Source: a virus. From it: 21,775 nucleotides of DNA. This document shows positions 251 through 19,760 of the stretch, in pieces. The stretch lies in IMG/VR virus record IMGVR_UViG_3300034520_000328, positions 1 through 21,775 of that record; one strand, given 5' to 3'. The first letter of the stretch is position 1, and the number at the start of each line of letters is the position of its first letter. Under the pieces are notes generated by a model that saw only the letters and a program-made list of their open reading frames with translations, had not been told where the DNA came from and made no database searches. A program made the translations under genes and the position numbers.

Positions 251-1525
251 CTAAGAGACTAAAGATAATTTTAATTTTGTTTGCTTATATAATTTGTTAT
301 GTTCTTTGGGAGTGATTATTCTAAAAGGTTTCTTATCTCTTAATACAGCAAAGATGTAATTTACTATTTTATGCATTAAGGCTACTAAAGCTACTTTTTT
401 AGGCTTAGATTGGGCTTTTAAGTTGTAGTAGTTATATAAAACAGGATTTATATATTTGCCATTGCGATTCTTTCTTATGGAAGCTAGAGCTGCCATAAAT
501 AGTACTCTACGAAGGTATCCAGAACCACGTTTAGACATCTTTACTCTATCTCCTTTAAATTTACCTGATTCTACTACAGCAGGATCTATACCACAAAATG
601 CTACTAATTTTCTAGCATTTTTGAAATTATTAAAATCACGTATTTCAGAAATAAATATAGCAGCTGATATAACTCCTATACCTGGAATTGTCGTTAATAG
701 TTTTACTTCTTCTATATTTTCAGCGATAGCTTTTATTTCTTTTTCTATCATAGACTTTTGCTCTATAAGTGTTTTTAATATAGTTATTGCTGATTTAATT
801 ACAATTTCACTGGTTTTAGGGGCGCAGCCAATTTTTAAAGCTGATATTGCTACATTTATTAAAGCATTGTATTTAGTTTTAGCCCATTTAAGACCTTTTT
901 TAGATAAAGTAGCTAAAGTAGTTATTAAAGTATCTTTATCAGCATTTAAAAGTTTTTCTGCTGACGGATAGTTTTCAAGTATATATAAAGATGCTTTAGA
1001 TGTAATATTTGAAAATACAGTATTGTATCTAGGAAAAATTTGATCTATTAAAGAAATTAAATTGTTTTTATACATTGTACAATCATCAGTTAATTTTATG
1101 TATTGACGAGTAAGGATATTAAGCTGTGCAAACTCTTTTTTAGGAGGTTTAGTAGGCTTAATTTCTCCTAATTTGTAAAGAATAGCAATACGGTATGCAT
1201 CCACTTTATCATTTTTCACTTTTCTAACTTTGATATTTTTGATAGAATTAGTTTGTATAGGATTTACTATACAAACTTCAAAGTTAGAATTGTGAAAGAA
1301 GTGGAAAAGTATGCTCGAGTAGTGCCCGGTTGATTCCATGACCAACACGCAAGAGGCATTGAGCTCTTTCTCTACTTCTTTCAACTTTTTTGAAACTCTT
1401 TCTAATCCAGTTAAATCATTTTCTTCTCTAAAAGGCTTGCCGTATTGCTCTCCATTAGGTGTAATAATTGCGTAATAACTAAATTCCTTTGCAACGTCAA
1501 TACCTACAATAATTTTGTTTTTCAT
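251..1525 (-). CDS. IS110-family transposase (DEDD recombinase)
   Basis: A 424-residue DEDD transposase of the IS110 family, which moves its insertion sequence by RNA-guided recombination using a RuvC-like domain plus a C-terminal domain carrying a catalytic serine. The N-terminal DEDD residues are visible: D10 in GIDVAK, E64 in VMESTGHY, and D106 and D109 in NDKVDAYRIA. The C-terminal Transposase_20 domain (about 275-365) shows the helix-hairpin-helix-like LLTTIPGIG, then CGIDPAV and KRGSGYLRR, where S335 is the likely catalytic serine. The ATG at 1525 is chosen because GAGG lies just upstream of it and the protein then starts directly at the DEDD domain. An upstream in-frame start at 1642 would add 39 residues unlike the family. 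Length and motifs look intact, so the element may be active. Confidence 0.93.
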   Translation of the reverse strand: MKNKIIVGIDVAKEFSYYAIITPNGEQYGKPFREENDLTGLERVSKKLKEVEKELNASCVLVMESTGHYSSILFHFFHNSNFEVCIVNPIQTNSIKNIKVRKVKNDKVDAYRIAILYKLGEIKPTKPPKKEFAQLNILTRQYIKLTDDCTMYKNNLISLIDQIFPRYNTVFSNITSKASLYILENYPSAEKLLNADKDTLITTLATLSKKGLKWAKTKYNALINVAISALKIGCAPKTSEIVIKSAITILKTLIEQKSMIEKEIKAIAENIEEVKLLTTIPGIGVISAAIFISEIRDFNNFKNARKLVAFCGIDPAVVESGKFKGDRVKMSKRGSGYLRRVLFMAALASIRKNRNGKYINPVLYNYYNLKAQSKPKKVALVALMHKIVNYIFAVLRDKKPFRIITPKEHNKLYKQTKLKLSLVS

Positions 1526-1600
1526 AAGAATAACCTCACTTTCTATGTGGTAAGAGTGAATCCATCCATTAGCCTTGAAGATATAACCTTGCATGTGAAA

Positions 1601-1779
1601 AGAGAATACCTTAAAGGTCTCAACCAGCCAAATTATATACATTCAAGGGATGGAACGATTCGCTTTTTTAAGGGTATCAGCCATTAGGCTTCCCAAGGGG
1701 GAATACATCAATATCACTCTTCCGAGAATGATTATATAATATTAGCCTATTGGTTGAAACCCTTTAAAGGTTATTCTCT
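1601..1779 (-). ncRNA. candidate IS110 bridge RNA region
   Basis: The non-coding DNA upstream of the transposase is bounded by two long, imperfectly complementary arms. One is at 1601-1626 (it begins AGAGAATACC and ends TCAACCA). The other is at 1751-1779 (it begins TGGTTGAAAC and ends TTATTCTCT). They enclose about 180 nt, which could fold on a basal stem. In the IS110 group the bridge RNA, roughly 180 nt, is encoded upstream of the transposase and read in the same direction; position and size match. The guide loops cannot be assigned without the insertion site, and the exact ends are a guess. Confidence 0.45.
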
Positions 1780-3480: not shown

Positions 3481-6048
3481 ATGGCCAAGGGTGGTAATAC
3501 AGTAGTTGCTAGAGTGGGACTTGATGACAGTGGATTTCAACAGGGTGTCCAAAAGATCCAAAGAAGCCTAAAGGTGGTAAGAAGTGAATTTGCAGCTGCA
3601 AGTTCAAAACTTGGTGACTTTGGAAAATCAACTGAAGGACTAAAACTAAAGGCGAATAGTTTAAGTAAACAAATGGAGCTTCAAAAGGCTAAAGTAGCAG
3701 CCCTTACAAGAAGCTATCAAGAAAGTGTAGAGAAAAAAGGTGCAGATGCTAAAGCTACGGAGAATCTTAGGATAAGACTTAACTATGCCATCGCAGACAT
3801 GAACAAGATGGAAAATGAGCTTAATGAAGTAAATAGGGAAATAGAGATTCAAAGTAGTGGGTTCACGAAGCTAGGCAAAAGCTTTGAAGGCATTGGCAGA
3901 AAAATGAAAAACATAGGGGATGGATTTTCAAGTGTAGGCAAAAAACTATCTATGTCTGTAACTGCTCCTATTGTTGCTGCTGGAACAGGACTTGTAAAGC
4001 TTGCTAATGATTTTGAAACAGCTCATAATACCATTCGTATTGGGACTGGAGCAACTGGTGAAGCTTTAAAGGGGCTCGAAGAAGATTTTAAATCTGTGTA
4101 CACTTCATTTAATACAAGTATGGAAGATGCCAGTACAGTGGTTGCTGACCTTAATACAAGAACAGGTCTATCTGGCAAGTCCCTACAACAATTATCATTA
4201 CAAATGTTAAAGCTTGCTAAAATCACTGGAGAAGATATGAATACCCTTATCCCTGCAGCAACTAGGATGTTTCAAGATGCAGGTATTGGGGCAGAAGAGT
4301 ATGGAGATGCACTTGATTATACCTTTAAAGTCAGTCAAAGTACAGGTATCGGAGTAGGGAAATTACAGCAGCTTATGACACAGTTTGGTGGTCCATTAAG
4401 GCAGATGGGATTTGACTGGCAAACCTCTGCAGCCATGCTTGGTAAATTTGAAAAAGAAGGGGTTAATACAGAGCTTGTACTTGGTTCACTTCGAATTGCC
4501 CTTGGAAAAATGGCTAAGGAAGGTATAAGTGAACCAAATAAGGCACTTTCAGAAATGATTACTCGCATTAAAGAAGCAGGTACAGCTGGTGAAGCCAATG
4601 CCATGGCACTTGAAATGTTTGGCGCAAGGGCAGGTCCGGATATGGCCGCTGCCATTAGAGAAGGAAGACTTGACCTTGATGCACTCATAGAAAGTATAAA
4701 AACAAATCCTGAAACAATAGCAAAAGCAGCTAAGGATACAGAAACAATAGCAGATAAATTTGCAGTGCTAAAAAACCAAATGATGGTTTCTTTAGAGCCA
4801 TTAGGAAAAAAACTTTTAGAATCAATAGAAGGTGCAATGCCTGCCATTCAAAAACTATTACAAGGTATAACAAATATCATTGAAAAATTCAATAACTTAA
4901 GTCCAGCACAGCAGGATATGATTTTAAAATTTGCCCTTGTTGCAGCGGCAATTGGACCAGTATTGACAGTAGTAGGAAAATTAGTATCCGTAGGAGGAAC
5001 TCTTTTTTCTACCTTTGGGTCAATATCTACAGCTCTTGGTGCTGCCGGAGGAGCAAGTAGTGTGCTAGGAGCAGCCTTTACAGCCCTAACAGGGCCAGTA
5101 GCCTTAATAATTGGAGCCATAGTGGGACTTACAGCGGTATTTGTTACACTTTATAAAAACAATGAAGACTTTAGAAATGTAGTTAATGAAACCTGGAATG
5201 AAGTTAAGGCTGTAATAGGAACAGTTATAGAAGCACTAAAGGGACTATTTCAAACCTTCATAAACTTTGCCATGGACATCTGGAGTAAATATGGTGATGA
5301 TATTGTAGCTATTATCTCTTCAGCCTTTGATACAATAGAAAACATTGTAAAGACTACTTTAAATGTAATTAAAGATGTGATTAAGATTGTTACTAGTCTT
5401 ATAAAAGGAGATTGGCAAGGGGTATGGGAAGGAATAAAAAGTCTTACAAAGAATCTTTGGGATGGAATTAAAAATATTATAAGTAGTTCCTTTGACTTTA
5501 TAAAGAATATAATTACTTTGCAAATGAAATTCATAGAAGGATTTATTTCTGGTATCTGGAATGGTATTAAAACCGTTACCTCTAATGTTTGGAACGGAAT
5601 CAAAACTGCTATTGAAACCCCTATTATTGCAGCGAAGAATACCGTGAAAAAAGCTATTGATTCTATTTATAGATTCTTTGCTAATTTAAGAATCCCTGAA
5701 ATCAAAATTCCTAAAATTAAACTTCCTCATTTTAAATTAAAAGGGGACTTTAGTTTAAATCCACCCAGTGTACCCAAGCTAAGTGTCAATTGGTATGCAA
5801 AGGGTGGTATTTTTAATAGACCAAGCATCATTGGGGTTGGAGAAGCAGGAACAGAGGCAGTTCTTCCAATAGATAGGCTAGATGATATTTTCGCAAGGGC
5901 ACTTCAAAAAGTACAAGGAACAGGTTCTGGGGGAATTACCCTTCATATAGATAAATTTATTAATAACACAGATAAGGACATAGAACAGCTTGCCTACGAA
6001 CTAGAATTTTATAGACAAAGAGTAGCAACGGGAAGGGGTGGTGTATAG
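3481..6048 (+). CDS. phage tail tape measure protein
   Basis: An 855-residue tape measure protein, which sets tail length and is ejected during infection. The N-terminal 130 residues are coiled coil. Residues about 160-400 match the TP901-type tape measure core (FETAHNTIRIGTGATG, MFGARAGPDMAAAI). A long hydrophobic glycine/alanine-rich stretch at about 480-565 could span a membrane. Tryptophan-containing repeats such as NVWNGIKTA follow at about 575-720. The C-terminus has the common YAKGGIFNRPSIIGVGEAG signature. The start is fixed by AAGGGAGGTGA upstream of ATG. Family tape measures range from 600 to over 2000 residues, so this implies a fairly short tail of roughly 120-130 nm by the usual length rule (inference). 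Confidence 0.95.
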   Translation: MAKGGNTVVARVGLDDSGFQQGVQKIQRSLKVVRSEFAAASSKLGDFGKSTEGLKLKANSLSKQMELQKAKVAALTRSYQESVEKKGADAKATENLRIRLNYAIADMNKMENELNEVNREIEIQSSGFTKLGKSFEGIGRKMKNIGDGFSSVGKKLSMSVTAPIVAAGTGLVKLANDFETAHNTIRIGTGATGEALKGLEEDFKSVYTSFNTSMEDASTVVADLNTRTGLSGKSLQQLSLQMLKLAKITGEDMNTLIPAATRMFQDAGIGAEEYGDALDYTFKVSQSTGIGVGKLQQLMTQFGGPLRQMGFDWQTSAAMLGKFEKEGVNTELVLGSLRIALGKMAKEGISEPNKALSEMITRIKEAGTAGEANAMALEMFGARAGPDMAAAIREGRLDLDALIESIKTNPETIAKAAKDTETIADKFAVLKNQMMVSLEPLGKKLLESIEGAMPAIQKLLQGITNIIEKFNNLSPAQQDMILKFALVAAAIGPVLTVVGKLVSVGGTLFSTFGSISTALGAAGGASSVLGAAFTALTGPVALIIGAIVGLTAVFVTLYKNNEDFRNVVNETWNEVKAVIGTVIEALKGLFQTFINFAMDIWSKYGDDIVAIISSAFDTIENIVKTTLNVIKDVIKIVTSLIKGDWQGVWEGIKSLTKNLWDGIKNIISSSFDFIKNIITLQMKFIEGFISGIWNGIKTVTSNVWNGIKTAIETPIIAAKNTVKKAIDSIYRFFANLRIPEIKIPKIKLPHFKLKGDFSLNPPSVPKLSVNWYAKGGIFNRPSIIGVGEAGTEAVLPIDRLDDIFARALQKVQGTGSGGITLHIDKFINNTDKDIEQLAYELEFYRQRVATGRGGV

Positions 6049-6755
6049 TGCCGAGCTTTAATTTTAATGGAAAAGATAGCTATTTAGACTTTGGAATACT
6101 GATTGCAAAAAGACCAACCATTCCTTCTCCAAGGCGTAGAGTAAGCTATATAGATATTCCTGGAAGGCACTCAAGACTTAGATACGATGAAGGTACCTTT
6201 GAGGATATTACTATAGCAGTTGAATGCACAATTAAAGATGGAAATGATATTCATTTAAAGATTGATAACATCAAGTCATGGTTATTTGGTGCAGGTGAGG
6301 GTGATTTAGTATTTAGCTTTCAGCCTGATAAAAAGTATATAGCTCAGGTAGTTAATGCCATAGATTTTGAGCAGGTATTTAAATATGCTTCAAGATTCCC
6401 TATTTTATTTAATTGTAGACCTTTTAAGTATGCTGCTATAAATAACATACTTACAATTACAGAAAGTGGGAGCTTTATTACAAACCCAGGAAGTATAGAA
6501 AGTAAGCCGGTTATAACGGTTTATGGTACAGGAAATATAAACCTCATAATAAATGATTCAGAGGTTGAGCTTTCTGATATTGAAAATAAAATTATTTTAA
6601 ACTGTGAGATTGAGGATTGTTACGATGATGAGTTTAATAATCTAAACTCTAAAATGATAGGAGAGTTTCCAACTCTTATTCCTGGCTCAAACAATATAAT
6701 GTGGACAGGAAATGTAGAAAAAATAGAAATACTACCTAATTGGCGGTGGCTTTAA
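6048..6755 (+). CDS. distal tail protein (Dit-like)
   Basis: A 235-residue phage tail protein. The N-terminal segment (FNGKDSYLDFGILIAKRPTIPSPRRRV, then DIPGRHSRL and YDEGTFEDI) is the classic Dit-type N-terminus, the hub ring joining tail tube to baseplate. It begins at a GTG whose G is the last base of the tape measure stop codon, with GGGGTGG upstream, so it is translationally coupled. Its stop codon overlaps the next gene's ATG as TAATG. Position between tape measure and Tal is the standard siphovirus order. Confidence 0.9.
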   Translation: MPSFNFNGKDSYLDFGILIAKRPTIPSPRRRVSYIDIPGRHSRLRYDEGTFEDITIAVECTIKDGNDIHLKIDNIKSWLFGAGEGDLVFSFQPDKKYIAQVVNAIDFEQVFKYASRFPILFNCRPFKYAAINNILTITESGSFITNPGSIESKPVITVYGTGNINLIINDSEVELSDIENKIILNCEIEDCYDDEFNNLNSKMIGEFPTLIPGSNNIMWTGNVEKIEILPNWRWL

Positions 6756-8659
6756 TGATTACAGTTTACGATAAGAAAACAACTAAGGAAAATTTTAATA
6801 ATAACGGTTTAGCAGTTTTAGATGAGTGCATTACCGCTGAAATTACGGAAGAACTTAATGGAGAATACGGTCTATACCTTGTGTATCCAGCAAATTCTAA
6901 AAAGGCAAATTATCTTTTAGAATTTAATATTATTAAGGCAGATGGACAGCTCTTTAGGATATATAAAATTGAAAGAGAGCAGGAAAGTATAAGAAAAATA
7001 AAGGTTTGGGCAAGGCATATATTTTATGACCTTGCTTTTAACTTTATAGAAGCAGTAAACCTTTTAAATGCAAATATGAAGGAAGCTTTAGAAGGAACTA
7101 TACCACCTGAAGCTCAAGTGGTATTTGATATTACAGGACCAGAGAAAAACATATATCCTGTTAACATGAGGAATGTAAATGGTCTTGAAGCAATTTTTAA
7201 ACTCATTGAAATATATGGTGGAGAATTAAAAAGAGATAACTTTAAGACAGAAATAGTAGAAAATTTAGGAGAAACAAAGGACATTACAGTAAGATACGGT
7301 AAAAACATAAAGGGACTTAGGGCCATTATTGATACAAATGAATTTGCTACAAGAATTTATCCAATAGGAGAGAACAATTTAGTTCTTCCTGAAAGATATG
7401 TAGAAGCAGACAGCAGTATAGCAAATCTTCTTCCCTATCCAATTACAAGGAAAGTGGAGTTTTCAGGGATTAAGGATATAGAGCAGCTTAGGGATTTAGC
7501 TAAAGAATATATAAAAAAGACTTCAAATCCCTTTATAAACATATCAGTTGATTTTCTAGAATTAAGCAAGACGAAGGATTATGAAGCATATTCAAATCTA
7601 TTTAATTTAAATTTAGGAGATATAGTAAAAGTAAAGCATGAAAAGCTAGGTATCTATTCTGAACTTAGAGTTATAAGAAGGGTTAAGGATTTGATTAGAC
7701 CTATAAACACCAAAATAGAGCTTGGGAATCCCCTTAATACAATAATATCAAAGCTTGACTTTACAAGTATTTTAGAAAGGTTAGAAAGTAAGATTGAAGG
7801 AAGTCAAAATGCAGTAATTATAAAGAAGAATACTGAAGCACTTACAATAAGCTCTACTTCCTTTTATCAGGCTATATCTGTAGGAATTTCAGCTTTAGCT
7901 GACACCAATTTAACCTGTAATTTAATTATTAATGGAAGTGCCTCAATAGACCTTACACTTTTTATGAAATTTTCATTAGATGGGCAGTACTACGAATTTC
8001 AGCCCAGCCAAAGCTTAGCCCAGGGTGAAAATGTAGTAAACATAACAATTCCACTACCACAGATAACAGCAGGCCAGCACGCCTTTGCAGTGGAAATGAA
8101 AACATCGGCAGGCACTTTTAATATTGATAAAAGTAATCTGCAAGTAATGATAGAAGGTCGCCATTTAGAAGGAGGACTCAGTCCAAGTCTACCGAGGGCA
8201 GAAGTAGTGCAGTTTGTGCTATTTGCTTTGTTTTTAAATAAGATACAGAGTATTAAAGATAATTTAAAAACTGAAGTAAATATTAATAGTCCATTAGATA
8301 ATAAACTACAAAGTTCACAGCAGATAAGCTATAGCGAAGCATTAAGTAAAGGTCTAACAAACTTAAATACAGATATAGATATAACAATGCAGATTATGGG
8401 GATTAGTCAAATTGCTGATGAAGCTTTTTATTTAAATCTTATTTTAGATGAATGGATGAAACACTTTAAAGAGCTAAAAGATATGGGAGATGGAAATTGG
8501 GAAGAAGATAATTATATCACTATTGAAGAATTAAAACCTACTATGAAAGGAGAGCCTGGAGTAACCCTTGGAACAGGAGCTATGTTTACAGTAGGGTTTT
8601 CAGACCCAAGTCAATATAGAGAATTAACAAGTTTTGAAGTGCAGTTAGAAGCAATATAA
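6755..8659 (+). CDS. prophage endopeptidase-type tail protein (Tal-like)
   Basis: A 634-residue tail-tip protein. The first 350 residues match the Prophage_tail / tail-associated lysin family: ITVYDKKT, then DECITAEITEELNGEYGLYLVYP, a baseplate hub-like fold, and the LGDIVKVKHEKLG element. The second half is a probable carbohydrate- or structure-related extension and is not recognised. The ATG at 6755 overlaps the Dit stop codon and has GGCGGTGG upstream; an in-frame TTG at 6740 would add five residues but is less likely. No obvious lysozyme or peptidase motif is visible in the C-terminal part, so enzymatic activity is uncertain. Confidence 0.85.
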   Translation: MITVYDKKTTKENFNNNGLAVLDECITAEITEELNGEYGLYLVYPANSKKANYLLEFNIIKADGQLFRIYKIEREQESIRKIKVWARHIFYDLAFNFIEAVNLLNANMKEALEGTIPPEAQVVFDITGPEKNIYPVNMRNVNGLEAIFKLIEIYGGELKRDNFKTEIVENLGETKDITVRYGKNIKGLRAIIDTNEFATRIYPIGENNLVLPERYVEADSSIANLLPYPITRKVEFSGIKDIEQLRDLAKEYIKKTSNPFINISVDFLELSKTKDYEAYSNLFNLNLGDIVKVKHEKLGIYSELRVIRRVKDLIRPINTKIELGNPLNTIISKLDFTSILERLESKIEGSQNAVIIKKNTEALTISSTSFYQAISVGISALADTNLTCNLIINGSASIDLTLFMKFSLDGQYYEFQPSQSLAQGENVVNITIPLPQITAGQHAFAVEMKTSAGTFNIDKSNLQVMIEGRHLEGGLSPSLPRAEVVQFVLFALFLNKIQSIKDNLKTEVNINSPLDNKLQSSQQISYSEALSKGLTNLNTDIDITMQIMGISQIADEAFYLNLILDEWMKHFKELKDMGDGNWEEDNYITIEELKPTMKGEPGVTLGTGAMFTVGFSDPSQYRELTSFEVQLEAI

Positions 8660-8698
8660 ATAAAAATTTAACTGAGAATTAGGTGGTGTATAGACTGA

Positions 8699-9751
8699 AT
8701 GCCTAAAATAGAAACTTTTGAAAATGAAATATTGATATTTAACTTCACAGGAGATTGGGAAAGAACTACCCAAAGGGCCTATGAGGGAAGTTACTCTTAT
8801 GGAAGTAAAAATATTTCCCATAGAGAAGAGTCTAATGCCTATCTAACTATTGTTACAGATTATATAGAGTTTCATTGGTATGTTAGTTCTGAAAGTAATT
8901 ATGACTATTTTGAATTTTATATTGACGGGAATAGAGAAATAAGAGAGTCAGGAACTTCTGGCTGGAATAAGTTTTCAAAATCATTAACTAAAGAAGAACA
9001 TACATTTCATTGGAAATATTATAAAGATGGCTCAGTGAGTAGTGGTGATGATAGGGCCTATATAGACAACCTAATTCTAAATATAGGTGAAACTAGATAT
9101 TTTATAGAGGATGAAGGAGTAATGAAAGTTTGGAATGAAATAAACCAGCAGTATGAGGCAGTTAAAATAATTGATCAGCAGAATCAGGAGCTAGTGGATT
9201 TAACTCCAGACAAATTAACAGATGAAATATTTTTAAACTATGGAATGGAAGAACTTCAAATAAGTAAAGAAGGACTTGTTGACCCACAACCTAAGATTTA
9301 TTATTTTACAAATGAAGAAGGAATAGTAAATAAAGCTAATAACTATGTCCTTAAGCTAACTGAAACCGTAAAGAGCCTTCCTAAAATAGTAGTAGAAAAC
9401 ACCGGAAGAACTTTGCAGCAAACAATCAGTTCAATTGTTATAGATGACATTGTTAGTGGAACTGGAGACTTACAGTACGCCTTAAGTAAAGATAAAATCA
9501 CATGGTATGCCTTTGATACTGTAAATATGGTTTGGCAGATTGTAGATATTACTGATGATATTGATTTTGCAGCAAAAGGGATGAGGAAGGAAGATTTTAT
9601 CCTAGTGACTGATACCCATTTTGAAGAAATATTTCAGGTAGGTGATGAGCTTTACTTAGCATTTCGATTTTTTAAAGGAGAAGAAACAGACGAAAGCAAG
9701 TTAAAGGGAATAAGAATAAACTATACTTCTCCTTTAGATATCACCATTTAG
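8699..9751 (+). CDS. probable tail fibre or baseplate adhesin
   Basis: A 350-residue protein located where receptor-binding and baseplate periphery proteins occur. Residues 1-130 look like a beta-sandwich lectin-like module (FNFTGDWERTTQRAYEGSYSYGS, later DDRAYIDNL), a pattern shared with jelly-roll binding domains in phage and cell-surface proteins. The remainder is beta-rich with VVENTGRTLQQTISSIVI. No signal peptide. It probably binds the host surface; a specific ligand cannot be inferred. The GGTGG upstream is 14 bases from ATG, a little distant. Confidence 0.6.
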   Translation: MPKIETFENEILIFNFTGDWERTTQRAYEGSYSYGSKNISHREESNAYLTIVTDYIEFHWYVSSESNYDYFEFYIDGNREIRESGTSGWNKFSKSLTKEEHTFHWKYYKDGSVSSGDDRAYIDNLILNIGETRYFIEDEGVMKVWNEINQQYEAVKIIDQQNQELVDLTPDKLTDEIFLNYGMEELQISKEGLVDPQPKIYYFTNEEGIVNKANNYVLKLTETVKSLPKIVVENTGRTLQQTISSIVIDDIVSGTGDLQYALSKDKITWYAFDTVNMVWQIVDITDDIDFAAKGMRKEDFILVTDTHFEEIFQVGDELYLAFRFFKGEETDESKLKGIRINYTSPLDITI

Positions 9752-9767
9752 GTTAAGGAGGTGTGTT

Positions 9768-11420
9768 ATGGCTGTAAGAGAAGTTATAAGTTATAACAAA
9801 GATTATATAACAGGAAATATAAATAAAGAAAAGAAAGTGAAAAAAGATACAGGGATAAAGGGGAAAGTGTTAGTTGAGCTCTTTGATGCAAATACAAACG
9901 AAAAAGTAATTGAAAGCTATACAGAAAATATAATACCTGATATTGTTTTTAAGGAGCTATTTGTAAGATTCTTTGCAGGAGATGTAATGGGAATCGACAA
10001 TAGCTACATTAGTAGATTAAAAGAGCTATTTAGTTATATATATCTTACTGATTCAACAAAACCTGAAAGTGCTAGTTCTGAAAAGATATCAGGGAATATC
10101 ATAGGTTATGCTGAAAGGAACTCACCTTATTCAGGAACAGATTCAAAGAAAGGGACAATTAATAAAACGGAAACAACTCTTGAGATCAACAATGAAAAAA
10201 TAAGAGTAAACTTTGTATTTGACTTTCCAACCCATGCTGCAAACGGAAGCTTTGAAAGTATTTATTGGGGAGATGATCCTGATAATCTAGATTATTTTTA
10301 TATAGGGCCACCCGTTGTTGGAAGGGGCCAGTCTGGTGATGGAAAAATATATGCAAGAAGTGATGATGATACCCGAGATATTTATTGGAGTGTCTATTAT
10401 TTCATGCACGGAAGTGCAGCAAAATATACAATATATACTGATTACAATAAAGGTTATGTTTGTTTTAATGGAGCATATAGCAGTGCAATAAATTCTACCT
10501 ACTTTACTTTCCCAGAACACTTAAAAGGATATCAGCTTATAGTTCCATTTAACTACAACATAAGGGGTTTTGCAGATTGGAATAACTCTATCAAGCTTCT
10601 TAATGATAGTGGAGAACCGATTACATCATCTGATATAAGCGGAGCTTTTCCTGTATTAAATGAGGTAGGAGAAATAGATTATATAATTGGATGGTATTTC
10701 TCTACAAGTGATGGGGGTTCTTTAAAGATATACAAATGGAGTAGTGTTGGTGTGCAGCAAGAGTTTTATGAGATTACTAATATAAATACTAATTTCCCAG
10801 ATGAATATAATTCAGACTTTACTGTAAGAAATGTCAGTGTAGAGCCAATTTTCTGGGGAGGCAAAATAGAACTTTACGGATATCATAGAAGAACAGACGA
10901 TATAACTGGAGAATACATTTACACTAATAGGGTAATTAGATTAAATATTGATTGCACCAAAGATAGTGAAATGAATCTTAAACCTAAAATAGGAAGTTCT
11001 TTATGGTTTGCTTCAAAAGGGATGGATAGCAGTAATATAGAAAGAAGGTGCTACTTAAGTTCTTTAACGGCAAGAACTAAAAACAGAATATATATTTACT
11101 ACTATGGAACAAATGGTGGAAGTAGCTTTTATCAAGTTGTAACGCCTGAAGGAAATTTACTTAAGCCTTATAAGGAGAATTGGGGTATAACTGGTGATTA
11201 TGGTGTGATTAATATAATAGGTACAGATAAATGGATTATGTACTACAGAGATTCTTATTCAAATTCTTATGCTTTTGCAGTTTATCAAACAGCAACAACA
11301 AGTCCCTGCGGGGCCCATACAAAACTTGCAAATCCAGTAGAAAAAACAGATGCTAATACAATGAAAATTCAGTATATGTTTGAAATTGATTTAGTTGATT
11401 ATGCTAATGATGTATATTAG
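9768..11420 (+). CDS. phage tail-associated protein, possible receptor-binding
   Basis: A 550-residue protein with an excellent ribosome binding site (AAGGAGGTG at 9755-9763). The N-terminal 110 residues (KGKVLVELFDANTNEKV, ENIIPDIVF) look like a docking segment for the tail. The rest is rich in aromatic, glycine and aspartate residues with beta-propeller-like or fibre-like spacing (YWGDDPDNLDYFYIG). There is no transmembrane segment or enzyme motif. Its place before holin and amidase, after the tail-tip genes, points to a tail fibre or receptor-binding role. I do not recognise a family. Confidence 0.55.
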   Translation: MAVREVISYNKDYITGNINKEKKVKKDTGIKGKVLVELFDANTNEKVIESYTENIIPDIVFKELFVRFFAGDVMGIDNSYISRLKELFSYIYLTDSTKPESASSEKISGNIIGYAERNSPYSGTDSKKGTINKTETTLEINNEKIRVNFVFDFPTHAANGSFESIYWGDDPDNLDYFYIGPPVVGRGQSGDGKIYARSDDDTRDIYWSVYYFMHGSAAKYTIYTDYNKGYVCFNGAYSSAINSTYFTFPEHLKGYQLIVPFNYNIRGFADWNNSIKLLNDSGEPITSSDISGAFPVLNEVGEIDYIIGWYFSTSDGGSLKIYKWSSVGVQQEFYEITNINTNFPDEYNSDFTVRNVSVEPIFWGGKIELYGYHRRTDDITGEYIYTNRVIRLNIDCTKDSEMNLKPKIGSSLWFASKGMDSSNIERRCYLSSLTARTKNRIYIYYYGTNGGSSFYQVVTPEGNLLKPYKENWGITGDYGVINIIGTDKWIMYYRDSYSNSYAFAVYQTATTSPCGAHTKLANPVEKTDANTMKIQYMFEIDLVDYANDVY

Positions 11421-11441
11421 TAAAAGGAGATGAAAGAAAAA

Positions 11442-11855
11442 ATGAAAAATATAATAAATACAATACAGATTGGTTTTACAGCCGTTGGTGGTTATCTCGG
11501 GTGGCTTATGGGAGGGGTTGATGGATTCTTATATGCTTTAATAGCTTTTGTAATCATTGATTATGTAACTGGAATCATGAGTGCAATCCTTCAGAAAAAG
11601 TTATCAAGTGATGTAGGATTTAAAGGAATTTTTAAAAAGATACTCATTTTTACAATGGTAGCAATAGGTCATATCATAGATGCATATATTATAAAAAATG
11701 GTAGTGCAATTCGTACTGCTGTTATTTTTTTCTACATTTCTAATGAAGGCATTAGTATCATAGAAAATGCTGCAAATATTGGGCTACCTATACCAAGGAA
11801 ACTAAAAGAGATTTTAGAGCAGTTAGGAAAGGACGATGCAGATGTTAATAAATAA
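11442..11855 (+). CDS. phage holin (holin 4/TcdE-type family)
   Basis: A 137-residue membrane protein that would permeabilise the cytoplasmic membrane to release or activate the endolysin. Three hydrophobic segments are visible: around residues 12-45 (GYLGWLMGG then ALIAFVIIDYVTGI, the family's D-Y-x-T-G signature), 65-85 (ILIFTMVAIGHII) and 90-112 (AVIFFYISNEGISIIENA). The charged tail ends in KDDADVNK. The ATG at 11442 is preferred over 11430 because AGGAG sits directly against the earlier ATG. It overlaps the amidase start by 20 bases, indicating a coupled lysis cassette. Confidence 0.9.
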   Translation: MKNIINTIQIGFTAVGGYLGWLMGGVDGFLYALIAFVIIDYVTGIMSAILQKKLSSDVGFKGIFKKILIFTMVAIGHIIDAYIIKNGSAIRTAVIFFYISNEGISIIENAANIGLPIPRKLKEILEQLGKDDADVNK

Positions 11856-12438
11856 GAAACTTATTAGATATAACTACTCTAGCAGAAAGGGAGAAAAAAT
11901 AAAATATATCGTCATCCATGATACAGGTAATAAAGATAAGGGAGCAGGTGCAAATAACCACTATAGATATTTTAATGGTGGAAATAGAAATGCATCTGCT
12001 CATTATTTTGTAGATGATAAAGAAATCATTCAAACAGTTGAGGATAGTGATGCTGCATGGCACTGTGGTGATGGCAAAGGAAAATACGGCATTACAAATA
12101 GAAACTCTATAGGAATAGAGATTTGTATTAATGCAGATGGCAACTATGAAAAAGCCTTAGAAAATGCAATAAAGCTAACCAAATATCTAATGAAAAAACA
12201 TAACATCAAGGTAGAAAATGTAGTTCGCCACTTTGATGCCAGTAGAAAAATCTGTCCTATGAGCATGAGTACAAACAACTGGGATAAGTGGTGGAATTTT
12301 AAAGATAGACTAAAGCAAAGACAAGTGTTTTACAGAGTAATTGCTGGCTCTTTTCAAGATAAACAAAATGCCATAAACCAAGTGAAAAGATTAAATGAAG
12401 CAGGCTTTGATGCAACGATTATTGCCTTTAATAAATAA
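11836..12438 (+). CDS. N-acetylmuramoyl-L-alanine amidase (endolysin)
   Basis: A 200-residue phage endolysin that cuts the bond between muramic acid and the stem peptide. The Amidase_2 fold covers about residues 20-145. The zinc ligands expected for the T7 lysozyme type are visible as H28 (VIHDTG), H132 (VVRHFD) and C140 (RKICP), with K138 and H56 nearby in family-conserved positions. The C-terminal 40 residues (FYRVIAGSFQDKQNA, then RLNEAGFDATII) resemble a short SPOR-type peptidoglycan-binding motif. GGAAAGGA precedes the ATG at 11836; a second in-frame ATG at 11842 is also possible. It overlaps the holin gene and is the last phage structural or lysis gene. Confidence 0.92.
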   Translation: MQMLINKKLIRYNYSSRKGEKIKYIVIHDTGNKDKGAGANNHYRYFNGGNRNASAHYFVDDKEIIQTVEDSDAAWHCGDGKGKYGITNRNSIGIEICINADGNYEKALENAIKLTKYLMKKHNIKVENVVRHFDASRKICPMSMSTNNWDKWWNFKDRLKQRQVFYRVIAGSFQDKQNAINQVKRLNEAGFDATIIAFNK

Positions 12439-15088: not shown

Positions 15089-15101
15089 AGAAGTTAAGAT
15101 A

Positions 15102-15143
15102 AGCCAGTTGGAGTGATGTAAGTTCACTTCGACTGGCTTTTTT
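15102..15143 (+). terminator. rho-independent terminator after the recombinases
   Basis: A 15-bp stem begins with AGCCAGTTGG at 15102 and its partner arm ends GACTGGCT at 15138, with two G-U pairs. A seven-base loop separates the arms and six T follow. It closes the recombinase transcript and separates it from the promoter of the next operon. Confidence 0.88.
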
Positions 15144-15222
15144 GTGTTGTAAAAGGATAAATCACAAATATATGATTCATATTCGTACAATATATAAAAA
15201 ATATAAGAAGTATAAAAACAAA

Positions 15223-15250
15223 ATATATATCAAATAATCTTGATATATAT
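15223..15250. promoter_or_regulatory. perfect inverted repeat overlapping the -35 box, operator candidate
   Basis: ATATATATCAA at 15223-15233 and TTGATATATAT at 15240-15250 are an 11-bp perfect inverted repeat with a six-base spacer. Its last base is the first base of the -35 box, a classic repressor position. The half-site TATATATCA recurs in the 13-bp repeat at 1813-1853 and, as TGATATATA, at 12481-12489. Confidence 0.55.
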
Positions 15251-15278
15251 TGACAATATATCTTTTGTAAAATATAAT
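15250..15278 (+). promoter_or_regulatory. consensus promoter of the GHKL/DUF6339 operon
   Basis: TTGACA at 15250-15255, a spacer of exactly 17 bases, and TATAAT at 15273-15278: a perfect match to the housekeeping sigma consensus. CAATATAT occurs three times nearby (15188, 15254 and 15281). The leader of about 55 bases before the first gene also contains TCGAATATATCGA at 15301-15313. Confidence 0.85.
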
Positions 15279-15339
15279 GGCAATATATTTAAAAAATAAT
15301 TCGAATATATCGAAAATATTATAAAAGGAAGTGAAAGAG

Positions 15340-15564
15340 ATGGCTAAAAGCAAACATGATAAATTTGTGAGGATTGCTGAAAGTCGTACAAATAAAATAA
15401 TTAATTTAATAAGGTTGCTTGGTAATTGTTCTAATAAATCAAATTATGACTATTCAGATACAGAAGTTAAAAGCATATTTAATGCAATTGAAGCAGAATT
15501 AAAAATTGCAAAGAGTAGATTTCAAGGAGCAGATTCCAAAGATAATAAATTTAAATTGGGGTGA
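15340..15564 (+). CDS. small helical protein, first gene of the operon
   Basis: A 74-residue, lysine-rich protein of unknown function. Predicted from composition to be mostly helical (KFVRIAESRTNKIINLIRLLGN, then TEVKSIFNAIEAELKIAKSRF). It has no cysteines beyond one, no signal peptide and no membrane segment. The ATG at 15340 is chosen over the in-frame GTG at 15331 because AAGGAAGTGA is well spaced for it. It ends five bases before the ATPase start, so the pair is co-expressed. A regulator, adaptor or subunit of the downstream ATPase are all possible; I recognise no named family. Confidence 0.7.
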   Translation: MAKSKHDKFVRIAESRTNKIINLIRLLGNCSNKSNYDYSDTEVKSIFNAIEAELKIAKSRFQGADSKDNKFKLG

Positions 15565-15569
15565 TAAAT

Positions 15570-17465
15570 ATGGGGATAGGTTGGAACTTTCCATCTAATA
15601 ATTTTTCTCAGTTAAATGGTATAAGTGAGGCAGGGATTGAAACCTTTAGGGGGACACCATATAGTTCTTTAGCTCGTGAAATTTGTCAAAATTCTCTAGA
15701 TGCAATACTAGATAAAGATAAACCTGTTACTGTAGAATTCAAAAAAATATATATAGATAAATATGAAATACCAGGATATGAAGAATTGAAAGATGCTCTA
15801 GATAGGTGTCTTGATTTTTGGAGTGCATGCAACAACAAAAAGGCCATAGATTTTTTTCAGAATAGTTGTAATGTAATTAATAAAGAAAAAATAAGTGTAT
15901 TGAGAATTAGCGATTTTAATACAGTAGGGTTAATAGGCTCTGATAAAGAATATGAGATAACACCTTGGCAGAGTTTAGTTAAATCTTCAGGTGTATCTGA
16001 CAAAATGGGTTCAGCAGGTGGAAGTTTTGGAATAGGGAAATCTGCTCCTTTTGTATGTTCAGATATTAGAACTTTATTTTATAGTACATATGATATAAAC
16101 GGCTTAACTGCTACACAAGGTGTTTCTAGATTAGTATCATTTAGAGATAAAAATAATCAAATTACACAAGGTATAGGATACTATGGAAATAAAGAACGGA
16201 ACACCCCATTAAGAACTGAATTAGGTATGGATGAAACTTTTGATAGAGATGACAGAACAGGTACAGATATATATATAATTGGATTTATGGAAGATAATAA
16301 TTGGAAAGAAGAGATGGTAGCATCTGTTCTTGAAGGTTTTTTATTATCGACTTATAACAATAAACTAATAGTAAAAATAGAAGATGTGATAATTTCTAAA
16401 GAAAATTTACCTTTGCTAATTGAACAATATCAAAGTACCGTTAAATATGCATATAACTATTATCAAGTACTAACTTCCGATGAAACTATTACTATTAAGG
16501 AAGATTTTGCAGGACTTGGAGAAATAGAATTGAAAATATTATTATCTCAAAATCTACATAGAAAAGTATTAATTGCAAGAAGTACTGGAATGAAGATATT
16601 TGATAAACAAAATATTTCAAGTACTATTCAGTTTGCAGCTATATTAACTTTAAATGGTGAAGAAGTGAATAAATTTTTTAGAGATATGGAATCACCACAA
16701 CATGATGCTTGGGAACCAGATAGACACAAAGATAAAAAAATTGCAAAAAAGCGAAGAACAGAGTTATTTAGATTTATCAAAGAACAAATACTAAATATTG
16801 GAAGAAGTAATTCTATAGATGAATTAGATGCAGAAGGTGTAGGTGAATTTTTACCAGATAATATTCAAACATCAGAAAATGAACGAGATAGAGATATTGA
16901 AGAAACAATTTCAGATAAGACAAAACAAATTGATATTAAGGTAGTTGATAAGGTATCTATAACAAAAGGGACTACTAAAATTTATGATATATTGGCGAAT
17001 GAAGAAATAGCTACTACTGGTGAGTTTTCGGATGATGATTCAGATGGTGAGGGAAGGAAACCGACTGGAAAGCCAAATTCTACAAGTGGAGGAATTGGGA
17101 CTCCCGCTCCGGCAAAAGGTAAAGAAGATGGAAATTTTCCTATAAAAAAATATGTTGAGGTAGGGTTAGCATCGACAAGATTGTTATTAACTGATAAGGC
17201 TTCTAATAAATATAAACTCATTATGTTGCCAGAAAAAAATGCTGCAAATGGATTTGTTAAAATTAATTTATCAGGAGAACAGAGCAATGTTGAAGCTGAT
17301 ATATTATCCGCCTATAATGAAAGTGATTCTGTAACTTTGAAATGCTCAAAAGGAAAAATATTTATTGATAAAATTGTAGAGAAGAAGAAAATAATCTTAT
17401 CCTTTATTTTAGATTACTCAGACAATTGCTCTATGGAGGTGGGACTATATGGATATCAGATATAA
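15570..17465 (+). CDS. GHKL-fold ATPase (Hsp90/MutL-like), large operon protein
   Basis: A 631-residue ATP-binding protein of the GHKL superfamily (Hsp90, MutL, histidine kinases, gyrase B). The N box is E38-x-x-N41-x-x-D44 in REICQNSLDAI. The second motif is D115-x-N117-x-x-G120 in ISDFNTVGL. The third is GSAGGSFGIGKSAP at 147-160, the glycine-rich ATP lid, with K157 as in MutL-like proteins. A region to about residue 410 completes the ATPase and transducer. Residues about 487-520 are a Gly/Pro/Ser/Asp-rich linker, then a beta-rich C-terminal domain of about 110 residues. No histidine kinase phosphoacceptor or response regulator is nearby. ATG 15570 is preferred over the GTG at 15561 by spacing from GGGGTGA. 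It overlaps the next gene by 17 bases. Confidence 0.85.
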   Translation: MGIGWNFPSNNFSQLNGISEAGIETFRGTPYSSLAREICQNSLDAILDKDKPVTVEFKKIYIDKYEIPGYEELKDALDRCLDFWSACNNKKAIDFFQNSCNVINKEKISVLRISDFNTVGLIGSDKEYEITPWQSLVKSSGVSDKMGSAGGSFGIGKSAPFVCSDIRTLFYSTYDINGLTATQGVSRLVSFRDKNNQITQGIGYYGNKERNTPLRTELGMDETFDRDDRTGTDIYIIGFMEDNNWKEEMVASVLEGFLLSTYNNKLIVKIEDVIISKENLPLLIEQYQSTVKYAYNYYQVLTSDETITIKEDFAGLGEIELKILLSQNLHRKVLIARSTGMKIFDKQNISSTIQFAAILTLNGEEVNKFFRDMESPQHDAWEPDRHKDKKIAKKRRTELFRFIKEQILNIGRSNSIDELDAEGVGEFLPDNIQTSENERDRDIEETISDKTKQIDIKVVDKVSITKGTTKIYDILANEEIATTGEFSDDDSDGEGRKPTGKPNSTSGGIGTPAPAKGKEDGNFPIKKYVEVGLASTRLLLTDKASNKYKLIMLPEKNAANGFVKINLSGEQSNVEADILSAYNESDSVTLKCSKGKIFIDKIVEKKKIILSFILDYSDNCSMEVGLYGYQI

Positions 17466-18315
17466 ACTCTTCCCATATCCTATGCTTAGTCCTTTTACTG
17501 ATGACTATGAAGATTCAGGATTTATTTCAGAAGTTAGAGTTGTTAGAGATATCAATGAACTTGTGTTTTACTTAGATGTATTATTAGATAATGATGAGTT
17601 AAACAATATGATAGAACAAGATAAAGCTGAGTTTGTTTTTCATATTGAATGTTCTCAAACATCATATCGGACAATATTAAAGACATCACAAACTGAAAAT
17701 ATTAAGAGAATTCCTGAAAGTAAGCTTAATGGACGAGTAAGCGTATGCTCTTTTATTGTTGCTAAGCAAACAATACCTAATTTCATAAATAGCTGTTTTA
17801 ATAAGGATTATGAAGGTTTATCTTTTCATATTGAACGTGGAGGTATTTTAGCAATTGCAAATCAGTTTAATATTGACATTATGAAAGAAACAGAAGATCT
17901 GTCTAAAATACCTTCAATATTTTCTATTCTTAGACGTGATTCAGATGATGATTTAGGAATGCAAATAGAAATTGAAGGCGATAAAATAAAATTATGGCTC
18001 AATAACGAGGCATTTAATAATTATAAAAATGTATCAAATCTTCCAGTATTTCAACCATTATTACATTCAGCGCTCATATTACCAGCTTTAGTATATGTTT
18101 TTGAAGTACTGAAGACTTCAGGAACAGATGAATATGAGACATATCGTTGGTATAGGGCGATAGAACAGATTTTAAAGAAGTCTGAAATAGAGCTAAATAA
18201 AGAGGTTTTAGAAAATATACCTTCATATGAATTGGCACAAAAACTTCTTTCATTTCCTATTAATAGAGGATTAAAATCCATTATGAATTTTGGATTGGAG
18301 GATGAGGAAGAGTGA
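17449..18315 (+). CDS. uncharacterised protein, third gene of the operon
   Basis: A 288-residue soluble protein I do not recognise. Residues 1-130 look beta-rich (SEVRVVRDINELVFYLDVLL, ECSQTSYRTIL, VSVCSFIVA). Residues 135-215 include ERGGILAIANQFNIDI and MQIEIEGDKIKLWLN. The C-terminal third is helical (HSALILPALVYVFEVLK, YRWYRAIEQILKK). No signal peptide and no catalytic motif I can name. The ATG has GGAGGTG seven bases upstream and lies 17 bases inside the ATPase gene. Its TGA overlaps the next gene's GTG by four bases. Tight coupling implies it works in a complex with the ATPase and the DUF6339-like protein. Confidence 0.8.
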   Translation: MDIRYKLFPYPMLSPFTDDYEDSGFISEVRVVRDINELVFYLDVLLDNDELNNMIEQDKAEFVFHIECSQTSYRTILKTSQTENIKRIPESKLNGRVSVCSFIVAKQTIPNFINSCFNKDYEGLSFHIERGGILAIANQFNIDIMKETEDLSKIPSIFSILRRDSDDDLGMQIEIEGDKIKLWLNNEAFNNYKNVSNLPVFQPLLHSALILPALVYVFEVLKTSGTDEYETYRWYRAIEQILKKSEIELNKEVLENIPSYELAQKLLSFPINRGLKSIMNFGLEDEEE

Positions 18316-19070
18316 AATTATATTTTTTAAAGGAAGAGGCCTTAGAAACTTTGAAAGGAAATATAAAAACAAACTTAAAGAATTATACTGATAGATCAAA
18401 TGAATGGATAATTGATTTTTTTAATGGACAAGATCCTTTTGTTGAGTATAAAAAAGAAGTTAATGAGTTTGTTCTAGATATGTCTTATGAAAAACCAGAA
18501 GAGAGTGATATAGAGAATATAAAAATAATATATTCTGCTATGTCTATGCTTACAGAAACAGATGCAACTGATGAACGGTTATGGGCAGGATTGTGTCATG
18601 GAATGTTTTGGGAATATTTAAGGTATCGTTGGAGTGTAGATAAGAAGAAACCAACTGAAAATGACATAAAAAATAGGTTCTTTTTTTCTCAAAGTAGAAA
18701 AAGGTCTTTGATAACAAACACTTTATCGAAATTATGGTGGATTGGAAAGCTAACATATGATAAAAATAGAAGCAATCCATTTGAATTAACTGAGTATTTG
18801 AAGAATGACTTTGCAACAAAAACCAGAATATTATTTTCTAGCAATTATTCAAATAATCCTGTTATTGTTAGGGCACTAATATCTTCGTTGTTAGAATTTC
18901 AAAAAAAAGGTATAAATATAAATAGAGAGGTTTTTGTTGAAACTACCAAATATTTAAATGTATTAGGTGGTACATATATTTTAGATTATTTTGAAGAAAA
19001 AGAACTAGCCGAGAAAATAATGAAAAGAGTTGATGTTTTATTGGGTACACAAAATAAGATATCTGTTTGA
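18312..19070 (+). CDS. DUF6339-like protein, last gene of the operon
   Basis: A 252-residue helical protein. From memory it resembles the uncharacterised DUF6339 family (not verified by a search). Distinctive conserved-looking segments are ERLWAGLCHGMFWEYLRYRW at 88-107, NRFFF at 121-125, LWWIGKLTYD at 141-150 and NPFELTEYLKND at 155-166, rich in tryptophan and aromatic residues. It is acidic and has no membrane segment. It begins at GTG, overlapping the previous stop codon as GTGA. It ends without an evident terminator in the following 180 bases. The function of the family is not known to me; association with an ATPase in an accessory region suggests a defence or conflict role. Confidence 0.75.
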   Translation: MKLYFLKEEALETLKGNIKTNLKNYTDRSNEWIIDFFNGQDPFVEYKKEVNEFVLDMSYEKPEESDIENIKIIYSAMSMLTETDATDERLWAGLCHGMFWEYLRYRWSVDKKKPTENDIKNRFFFSQSRKRSLITNTLSKLWWIGKLTYDKNRSNPFELTEYLKNDFATKTRILFSSNYSNNPVIVRALISSLLEFQKKGININREVFVETTKYLNVLGGTYILDYFEEKELAEKIMKRVDVLLGTQNKISV

Positions 19071-19256: not shown

Positions 19257-19760
19257 ATGTTACAAGAACATAAAGACCAAGTCAAATGGCTGCGTAATAA
19301 AGGTTGGGGATATAAAAGAATAGCTAACTTTTTAGACTTAAAAAGAGATGAAGTTAGAAATTATTGCAGGAAAAGTGGCTTGACAGGCTATGCAGCAGAT
19401 ATCGAATCAAATTCAGAAAAAGTAGCGGACGAACTCATAGTCTATAAATTATGCTTGTATTGTGGCTCAAAATTAAAGCAAGAGGGACGAGGACGAAAAA
19501 GAAAATACTGTAATCCTGATTGTAAAAGAGAATGGCAAAAGAAGAATCGAAAACAGCATATCTTTAAGTGTGAATACTGTGGTAGATATTACAAAACTAC
19601 AAGAGCAACTGGTAGTAAGTACTGTAGTAATGAGTGTTATGTTAGAGATAGGTTTTATCGTAAAGAAGATGCAAAAGAAGTTGTTGATAAGATTTTGGCT
19701 AACAAGAAAGTAGAATATCTACCCAAGTGGTTGAAAGAATTATTGTTTTCAGAAGAATGA
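19257..19760 (+). CDS. HTH plus double zinc-knuckle protein
   Basis: A 167-residue basic protein. Residues 8-40 form a helix-turn-helix like those of sigma region 4 or resolvases (WLRNKGWGYKRIANFLDLKRDEVRNY has the expected spacing). Two zinc knuckles follow: C66, C69, C85, C89 and C105, C108, C123, C127, each CxxC then CxxxC. The C-terminus is helical. It is probably a DNA-binding protein. In clostridial mobile elements similar genes accompany serine recombinases, where a regulatory or directionality role is plausible; that is inference. Start by AAGGAG nine bases upstream, the AAGG of which lies in the palindrome arm. A phage or transposon regulator is the main alternative reading. Confidence 0.75.
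   Translation: MLQEHKDQVKWLRNKGWGYKRIANFLDLKRDEVRNYCRKSGLTGYAADIESNSEKVADELIVYKLCLYCGSKLKQEGRGRKRKYCNPDCKREWQKKNRKQHIFKCEYCGRYYKTTRATGSKYCSNECYVRDRFYRKEDAKEVVDKILANKKVEYLPKWLKELLFSEE

What the first reader, a model, noticed from the sequence alone, without database searches (positions are those of the whole stretch)
15223..19070. Four-gene GHKL-ATPase / DUF6339-like operon: candidate uncharacterised defence system
Seen: a consensus promoter with an operator-like palindrome, four genes coupled by short gaps or overlaps (5, 17 and 4 bases), and a clear GHKL ATPase motif set (E38/N41/D44, D115/N117/G120, GSAGGSFGIGKSAP). Known: GHKL ATPases such as Hsp90 and MutL act as ATP-driven clamps, and MutL-like GHKL proteins occur in prokaryotic conflict systems. 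Inferred: together with its place between recombinases and a type I RM gene, this is a compact antiviral or anti-plasmid system. The ATPase would be a sensor or clamp, and the third protein and the DUF6339-like protein effector or adaptor. No nuclease motif is visible, so the effector activity is unknown.
Basis: partly seen in the sequence, partly recalled or inferred. Interest (0 to 1): 0.82.

Follow-up and report, generated by a model that had tools for sequence, protein, structure and literature searches.

The report
PDC-M33: uncharacterised candidate phage-defence operon
A prophage carries a compact operon built around an ATP-driven, MutL/MORC-like protein that is already catalogued as a candidate phage-defence system; its three core genes always travel together, usually beside restriction-modification genes, but nobody has yet shown what it does.

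Summary
The operon is real: S (74 aa), A (634 aa GHKL-type ATPase), B (288 aa), C (252 aa, DUF6339), tightly coupled behind a 12-of-12 consensus promoter with a perfect 12-nt-arm palindrome. It is not unknown to databases: A, B and C match PADLOC's unpublished candidate system PDC-M33 (E down to 2e-239). The ATPase also fits paraMORC2, a GHKL family predicted in 2008 to work in restriction-modification (R-M) systems: GHKL motifs and the ExxxH signature are conserved in 75 homologues, and the MORC-specific motif is absent. In an even draw of 398 Bacillota genomes, A, B and C occur in the same 8, always adjacent and in order. R-M genes lie within 6 kb of 45 of 51 loci, against 2 of 20 loci of an unrelated Abi gene; cytosine methylases at 29 of 51 against 0 of 20. 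None is obligatory: 6 of 13 carrier genomes lack any C5-methylase, and only 3 of 7 unbiased loci show R-M genes. B and C have no solved structural relative and no nuclease motif. S is optional and goes with operator-like palindromes, so it may be a regulator. Best reading: an ATP-driven DNA clamp/adaptor defence module whose nuclease acts in trans. Defence activity is untested.

The parts
15101..15139 (+). Intrinsic terminator of the prophage recombinase; similarity to related prophages ends by about 15145-15159
   Evidence: 16-pair stem followed by T run; blastn of related prophages
15222..15251 (.). Operator-like perfect palindrome AATATATATCAA-N6-TTGATATATATT, overlapping the -35 box
   Evidence: the repeat finder I4; 2 of 500 shuffles reach 12-nt arms
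15250..15278 (+). Consensus sigma-70 promoter TTGACA-N17-TATAAT
   Evidence: 12 of 12 matches
15340..15564 (+). Gene S: 74-aa protein, optional leading gene; conserved in 31 aligned sequences, no Pfam, NCBIfam or PADLOC family; candidate regulator
15570..17465 (+). Gene A: GHKL-type ATPase, PDC-M33A, paraMORC2-like (alternative start GTG 15561)
   Evidence: PADLOC PDC-M33A 2.2e-239; conserved GHKL and ExxxH motifs; MORC motif absent
17449..18315 (+). Gene B: PDC-M33B; model with N-terminal beta-rich part and C-terminal helical part, no known catalytic motif
   Evidence: PADLOC 4.2e-104; model pLDDT 89.9; no PDB match at E<=0.001
18312..19070 (+). Gene C: PDC-M33C, DUF6339; mostly helical fold without a solved relative
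   Evidence: Pfam 1.8e-56, PADLOC 2.5e-99, model pLDDT 96.3, no PDB or BFVD match

Best explanation
The operon encodes a mobile, R-M-type defence module (PDC-M33) built around a paraMORC2-like GHKL ATPase. Shown: A-B-C is an obligate unit in the sample examined; A has complete GHKL motifs; the unit sits by preference beside cytosine methylases, restriction nucleases and helicases. Inferred: A dimerises on ATP binding and closes on DNA like MutL, Hsp90 or MORC; B and C are its adaptors (substrate recognition or coupling); ATP-driven looping or clamping of DNA lacking the protective mark hands it to a nuclease supplied by the neighbouring, exchangeable R-M genes. S, where present, would repress the operon at the palindrome, as C proteins do in type II R-M systems. 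In the window the module is cargo behind the integrase of a prophage, or lies in host DNA directly beyond it.
For: PADLOC A, B and C hits. A and C found in the same 8 of 398 genomes, A-B-C adjacent in all. C5-methylase within 6 kb at 29 of 51 loci against 0 of 20 Abi_2 loci, p=2e-6. Any R-M-type gene at 45 of 51 against 2 of 20. Methylase lies between S and A in L013, L046, L055 and L081. MORC (MzaB-like) and Z1 helicase genes in four Paenibacillus loci. Conserved GHKL and ExxxH motifs, matching the paraMORC2 description. No nuclease among the four proteins. The same prophage position carries PD-T4-1, a GajB-like helicase and PDC-M62AB in related phages.
Against: 6 of 13 carrier genomes have no C5-methylase at all. 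In the unbiased sample of 7 loci only 3 show R-M genes nearby, and PADLOC added only a DRT-type reverse transcriptase at L115 and a Cas12f/TnpB-like protein at L111. Partners are very varied, which also fits plain defence-island clustering. GHKL homology rests on motifs; profile comparison is only suggestive (P 0.004, controls 0.18 or more) and A was not modelled. No functional data exist.
Confidence: 0.5

Rival explanations
1. A-B-C is self-sufficient and needs no nuclease: like eukaryotic MORC2 the ATPase clamps and compacts invading DNA, silencing its transcription or replication; nearby R-M genes are only defence-island company.
For: No nuclease motif in any of the four proteins; 6 of 13 carrier genomes lack C5-methylase; 4 of 7 unbiased loci show no R-M gene by the labels used; MORC2 is an ATP-dependent DNA clamp and compactor (PMC12216690).
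Against: R-M enrichment is much stronger than for another defence gene; in four loci the methylase is inside the gene string, between S and A.
Confidence: 0.27
2. Abortive infection: B or C (DUF6339) is a toxin-like effector held in check or triggered by the GHKL ATPase.
For: B and C have no structural relative, so an unknown activity is possible; an AIPR (abortive-infection) gene leads the operon in the E. faecalis plasmid locus L012; C has conserved polar and aromatic residues such as N69, R89, W91, R106, R140 and W142-W143.
Against: No toxin or nuclease family match; AIPR genes are common companions of R-M operons in general (PMC2292703).
Confidence: 0.12
3. The module is not itself a defence system but regulates, matures or protects against neighbouring R-M systems (an anti-restriction or control cassette).
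For: Strong R-M association; S with operator-like palindromes.
Against: The trio occurs in genomes and loci without recognisable C5 R-M genes and is the only recognised cargo directly behind the prophage recombinase in the window.
Confidence: 0.07

Closest known systems
PDC-M33 (PADLOC-DB 2.0.0 candidate; PDC-x are described as unpublished candidates of Payne et al. 2021 in PMC11811056)
   Same: A, B and C match the M33A, M33B and M33C models over nearly their full length, in the same order
   Different: The PADLOC models matched here do not cover gene S; no function or experiment was found
paraMORC2 GHKL ATPases (Iyer, Abhiman and Aravind 2008, PMC2292703)
   Same: GHKL motifs, invariant ExxxH, no MORC motif, mainly Gram-positive, R-M neighbourhoods
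   Different: The text read does not mention B, C or S; orthology to the original members could not be checked because the figures are not held; paraMORC1 (C-terminal extension, co-occurs with MORC and HNH) is not excluded
Mza (MutL/MORC, Z1, AIPR) defence system
   Same: GHKL ATPase in R-M-like context; MzaB-like MORC plus Z1 plus Dcm occur next to A-B-C in four Paenibacillus loci
   Different: A matches only PDC-M33A and not MzaB; the window has no recognised Z1, AIPR or MzaA gene
VcSduA, GHKL-Shedu (PMC12137116)
   Same: GHKL ATPase thought to control a defence activity
   Different: VcSduA carries its own PD-(D/E)XK nuclease domain; A shows no such domain

Membership tests
PDC-M33 | PDC-M33A, B and C proteins adjacent in one operon | tested here: met
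   E 2.2e-239, 4.2e-104, 2.5e-99, near full-length
paraMORC2 | GHKL motifs I-IV | tested here: met
   E37/N41/D44, D115/T118/G120, G151/G154/G156, GTD; most are invariant in 75 sequences; profile comparison only weak
paraMORC2 | ExxxH in the C-terminal part of the S5 domain | tested here: met
   E374...H378 (numbered from ATG) invariant in 75 of 75; that it lies in an S5 fold is inferred from position
paraMORC2 | S5-fold domain after the GHKL domain | not tested
paraMORC2 | R-M gene neighbourhood | tested here: met
   45 of 51 loci against 2 of 20 controls; HsdM-like gene 1.5 kb downstream in the window
MORC proper | GhXhhpXXRhl motif in S5 | tested here: not met
   0 of 75 A sequences; present in 4 of 4 MzaB-like neighbours
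Mza | MzaB-type ATPase with Z1, nuclease and AIPR genes | tested here: not met
   A matches only PDC-M33A; no Z1 or AIPR gene recognised in the window
Shedu (GHKL type) | C-terminal DUF4263 PD-(D/E)XK nuclease | tested here: not met
   No Pfam or PADLOC nuclease match in A
Anti-phage defence system | Protection against phage or plasmid | not testable with these tools
   No experiment; only genomic association

The most novel reading that the evidence does not exclude
A-B-C is a nuclease-free, prokaryotic MORC-like machine that recognises unmodified or invading DNA and silences it by ATP-driven clamping and compaction, with the fold of C (DUF6339) a new effector or sensor type. It would be a bacterial counterpart of eukaryotic MORC silencing.
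Probability: 0.2. Interest if true: 0.85.

Novelty: new member of a known kind. Interest (0 to 1): 0.42.

Why it matters
It ties an unpublished catalogue entry (PDC-M33) to a 2008 prediction (paraMORC2) and shows that the ATPase is inseparable from two proteins of unknown fold. Roughly 2% of sampled Bacillota species carry it. If active it would let one test how MORC-like ATPases, known in eukaryotes as DNA-compacting silencers, began as anti-viral tools, and whether they need a nuclease.

Tried and rejected
Protein A against Pfam, NCBIfam and PHROGs: no meaningful match. Profiles of A against PDB sequences: only noise. hhalign of A against four MzaB-like proteins: not significant; against 23 GHKL proteins: N-box aligned, P 0.004, suggestive only. 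Fold searches of B and C in PDB and of C in BFVD: nothing at E<=0.001; B's best hits are fibronectin/cytokine-receptor-like beta sandwiches with TM 0.26 or less on the query, not taken as homology. Single-sequence scan of viral contigs found no relative. S as an obligatory part: rejected. Dcm as an obligatory partner: rejected. MzaA-like as a firm label for the 1001-aa neighbour: rejected, since the PADLOC match covers only a 29-residue HTH stretch. Rfam: no RNA family in the window.

Full report
Observation. The window is an IMG/VR virus record. From here S, A, B and C stand for genes 1 to 4.

Identity. A, B and C match PADLOC's candidate system PDC-M33 (A 2.2e-239, B 4.2e-104, C 2.5e-99), and C is DUF6339. 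No held paper mentions PDC-M33 or DUF6339. The PDC entries are described as unpublished candidates of Payne et al. 2021 (PMC11811056). A has no meaningful Pfam, NCBIfam or PHROG match, but 75 homologues down to about 20% identity keep the GHKL motifs: E37-Q40-N41-D44-A, D115-N-T118-x-G120, G151-S-F-G154-x-G156-K, G231-T-D, plus R337, M341 and E374xxxH378 (numbered from ATG 15570). Iyer, Abhiman and Aravind (2008, PMC2292703) describe paraMORC2 as GHKL+S5 proteins with a strongly conserved ExxxH, mainly in Gram-positives and cyanobacteria, in R-M operons with methylases, Vsr nucleases and helicases. The MORC motif GhXhhpXXRhl is absent from all 75 but present in 4 of 4 MzaB-like neighbours. A is therefore filed as paraMORC2-like. 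paraMORC1, which has a C-terminal extension and co-occurs with MORC genes, is not excluded because the figures are not held.

An obligate trio. One scan of species genomes found 386 relatives, of which 80 loci were kept. A, B and C lie together in nearly all loci, missing mainly where a contig ends, with gaps of 20 bases or less in every measured case. The unbiased test is an even draw of 398 Bacillota genomes: DUF6339 occurs in 8 (7 without the seed genome, 1.8%), PDC-M33A in the same 8, with one further weak GHKL match, and A-B-C is adjacent and ordered in each. The trio also occurs on plasmids of Priestia, Lactococcus, Ligilactobacillus, Deinococcus, Arthrobacter and a haloarchaeon.

Neighbourhood. 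Of 51 loci with 6 kb on both sides, 29 have a C5-cytosine methylase within 6 kb, against 0 of 20 loci of an unrelated abortive-infection family (Abi_2) from the same phylum (p=2e-6). Any R-M-type gene: 45 of 51 against 2 of 20. Partners include MutH/Sau3AI, AlwI, NgoFVII, Vsr, HhH-GPD nicking enzymes, type I genes, McrBC, GmrSD, PLD-helicase type IV enzymes and, in four Paenibacillus loci, an MzaB-like MORC with a Z1 helicase. In L013, L046, L055 and L081 the methylase lies between S and A. Caveats: loci are related to each other; partner labels were defined on these loci, which disfavours the control; the unbiased sample shows R-M genes in only 3 of 7; 6 of 13 carrier genomes have no C5-methylase anywhere. 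The association is strong but no single partner is required.

B, C and S. The B model (pLDDT 89.9, pTM 0.58) has a beta-rich N-terminal part and a helical C-terminal part; the C model (pLDDT 96.3) is mostly helical. Neither has a solved relative at E<=0.001. Some C proteins carry C-terminal extensions, two with a weak (sub-cut-off) HTH match. No nuclease was found. S is a conserved small family, present in about a third of loci; in 23 of 25 genomes tested, those without S at the locus, it was not found elsewhere either. Perfect palindromes with arms of 11 or more bases occur within 150 bases upstream in 10 of 34 S-bearing loci and 0 of 63 others, and S-bearing loci more often have a methylase (11 of 13 against 18 of 38). 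I infer that S is a control-protein-like regulator. Caveat: upstream regions of S-less loci may be coding and are less AT-rich.

Place. The recombinase just upstream has 40 relatives in viral contigs; where the flank can be compared, similarity fades by its terminator at about 15145-15159. The next genes in related prophages include PD-T4-1, a GajB-like helicase and PDC-M62AB. This is a defence-cargo position behind the integrase, or host DNA at the attachment end; the window cannot decide which.

Mechanism. Most likely an ATP-driven clamp (A) with two obligate adaptors (B, C) that brings foreign DNA to a nuclease supplied by exchangeable neighbours (0.5). The main rival is a self-sufficient MORC-like silencer (0.27), supported by the lack of a nuclease and of an obligatory partner and by the ATP-dependent DNA clamping of MORC2 (PMC12216690). 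Defence itself is inferred from context only.

Verdict. A sound observation of a known but uncharacterised candidate. What this work adds is the link from PDC-M33 to paraMORC2, the unbiased evidence for an obligate A-B-C trio, the quantified R-M association with its limits, and S as an optional, operator-linked gene.

Noticed in passing
L032, L039, L037, L044, L050, L097, L028 upstream of S; window 15222-15251: Long perfect palindromes (arms 12 to 27 bases) just upstream of S, some overlapping a -35-like TTGAC; rare in loci without S.
   Followed up: partly
window 15089-15160 and downstream of the recombinase in L178, L185, L201: The position behind the prophage serine recombinase carries different defence genes in related prophages: PD-T4-1, GajB-like helicase, PDC-M62AB.
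   Followed up: partly
L036, L038-L040, L043, L044, L046, L049, L052, L055-L057, L063, L083, L088: A roughly 1000-aa protein with an RNA-polymerase-alpha-CTD-like HhH domain and a sigma-70 region 4-like HTH lies next to or close to the trio in 15 loci; role unknown.
   Followed up: no
L059, L067, L078, L082: A MORC-type (MzaB-like) and a paraMORC2-like GHKL ATPase occur in one neighbourhood with Dcm and a Z1 helicase.
   Followed up: no
L030, L041, L097, L031, L033: C proteins with C-terminal extensions of about 90 to 260 residues; in L031 and L033 the extension weakly matches an rpiR-type HTH.
   Followed up: no
window 251-1642 and 3481-12438: IS110 transposase at the left end; tape measure, Dit, tail, holin and endolysin genes of a prophage before the recombinases.
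   Followed up: no
window 19257-19760: 167-aa protein with cysteine pairs suggesting zinc ribbons between C and the HsdM-like gene; no confident family.
   Followed up: partly
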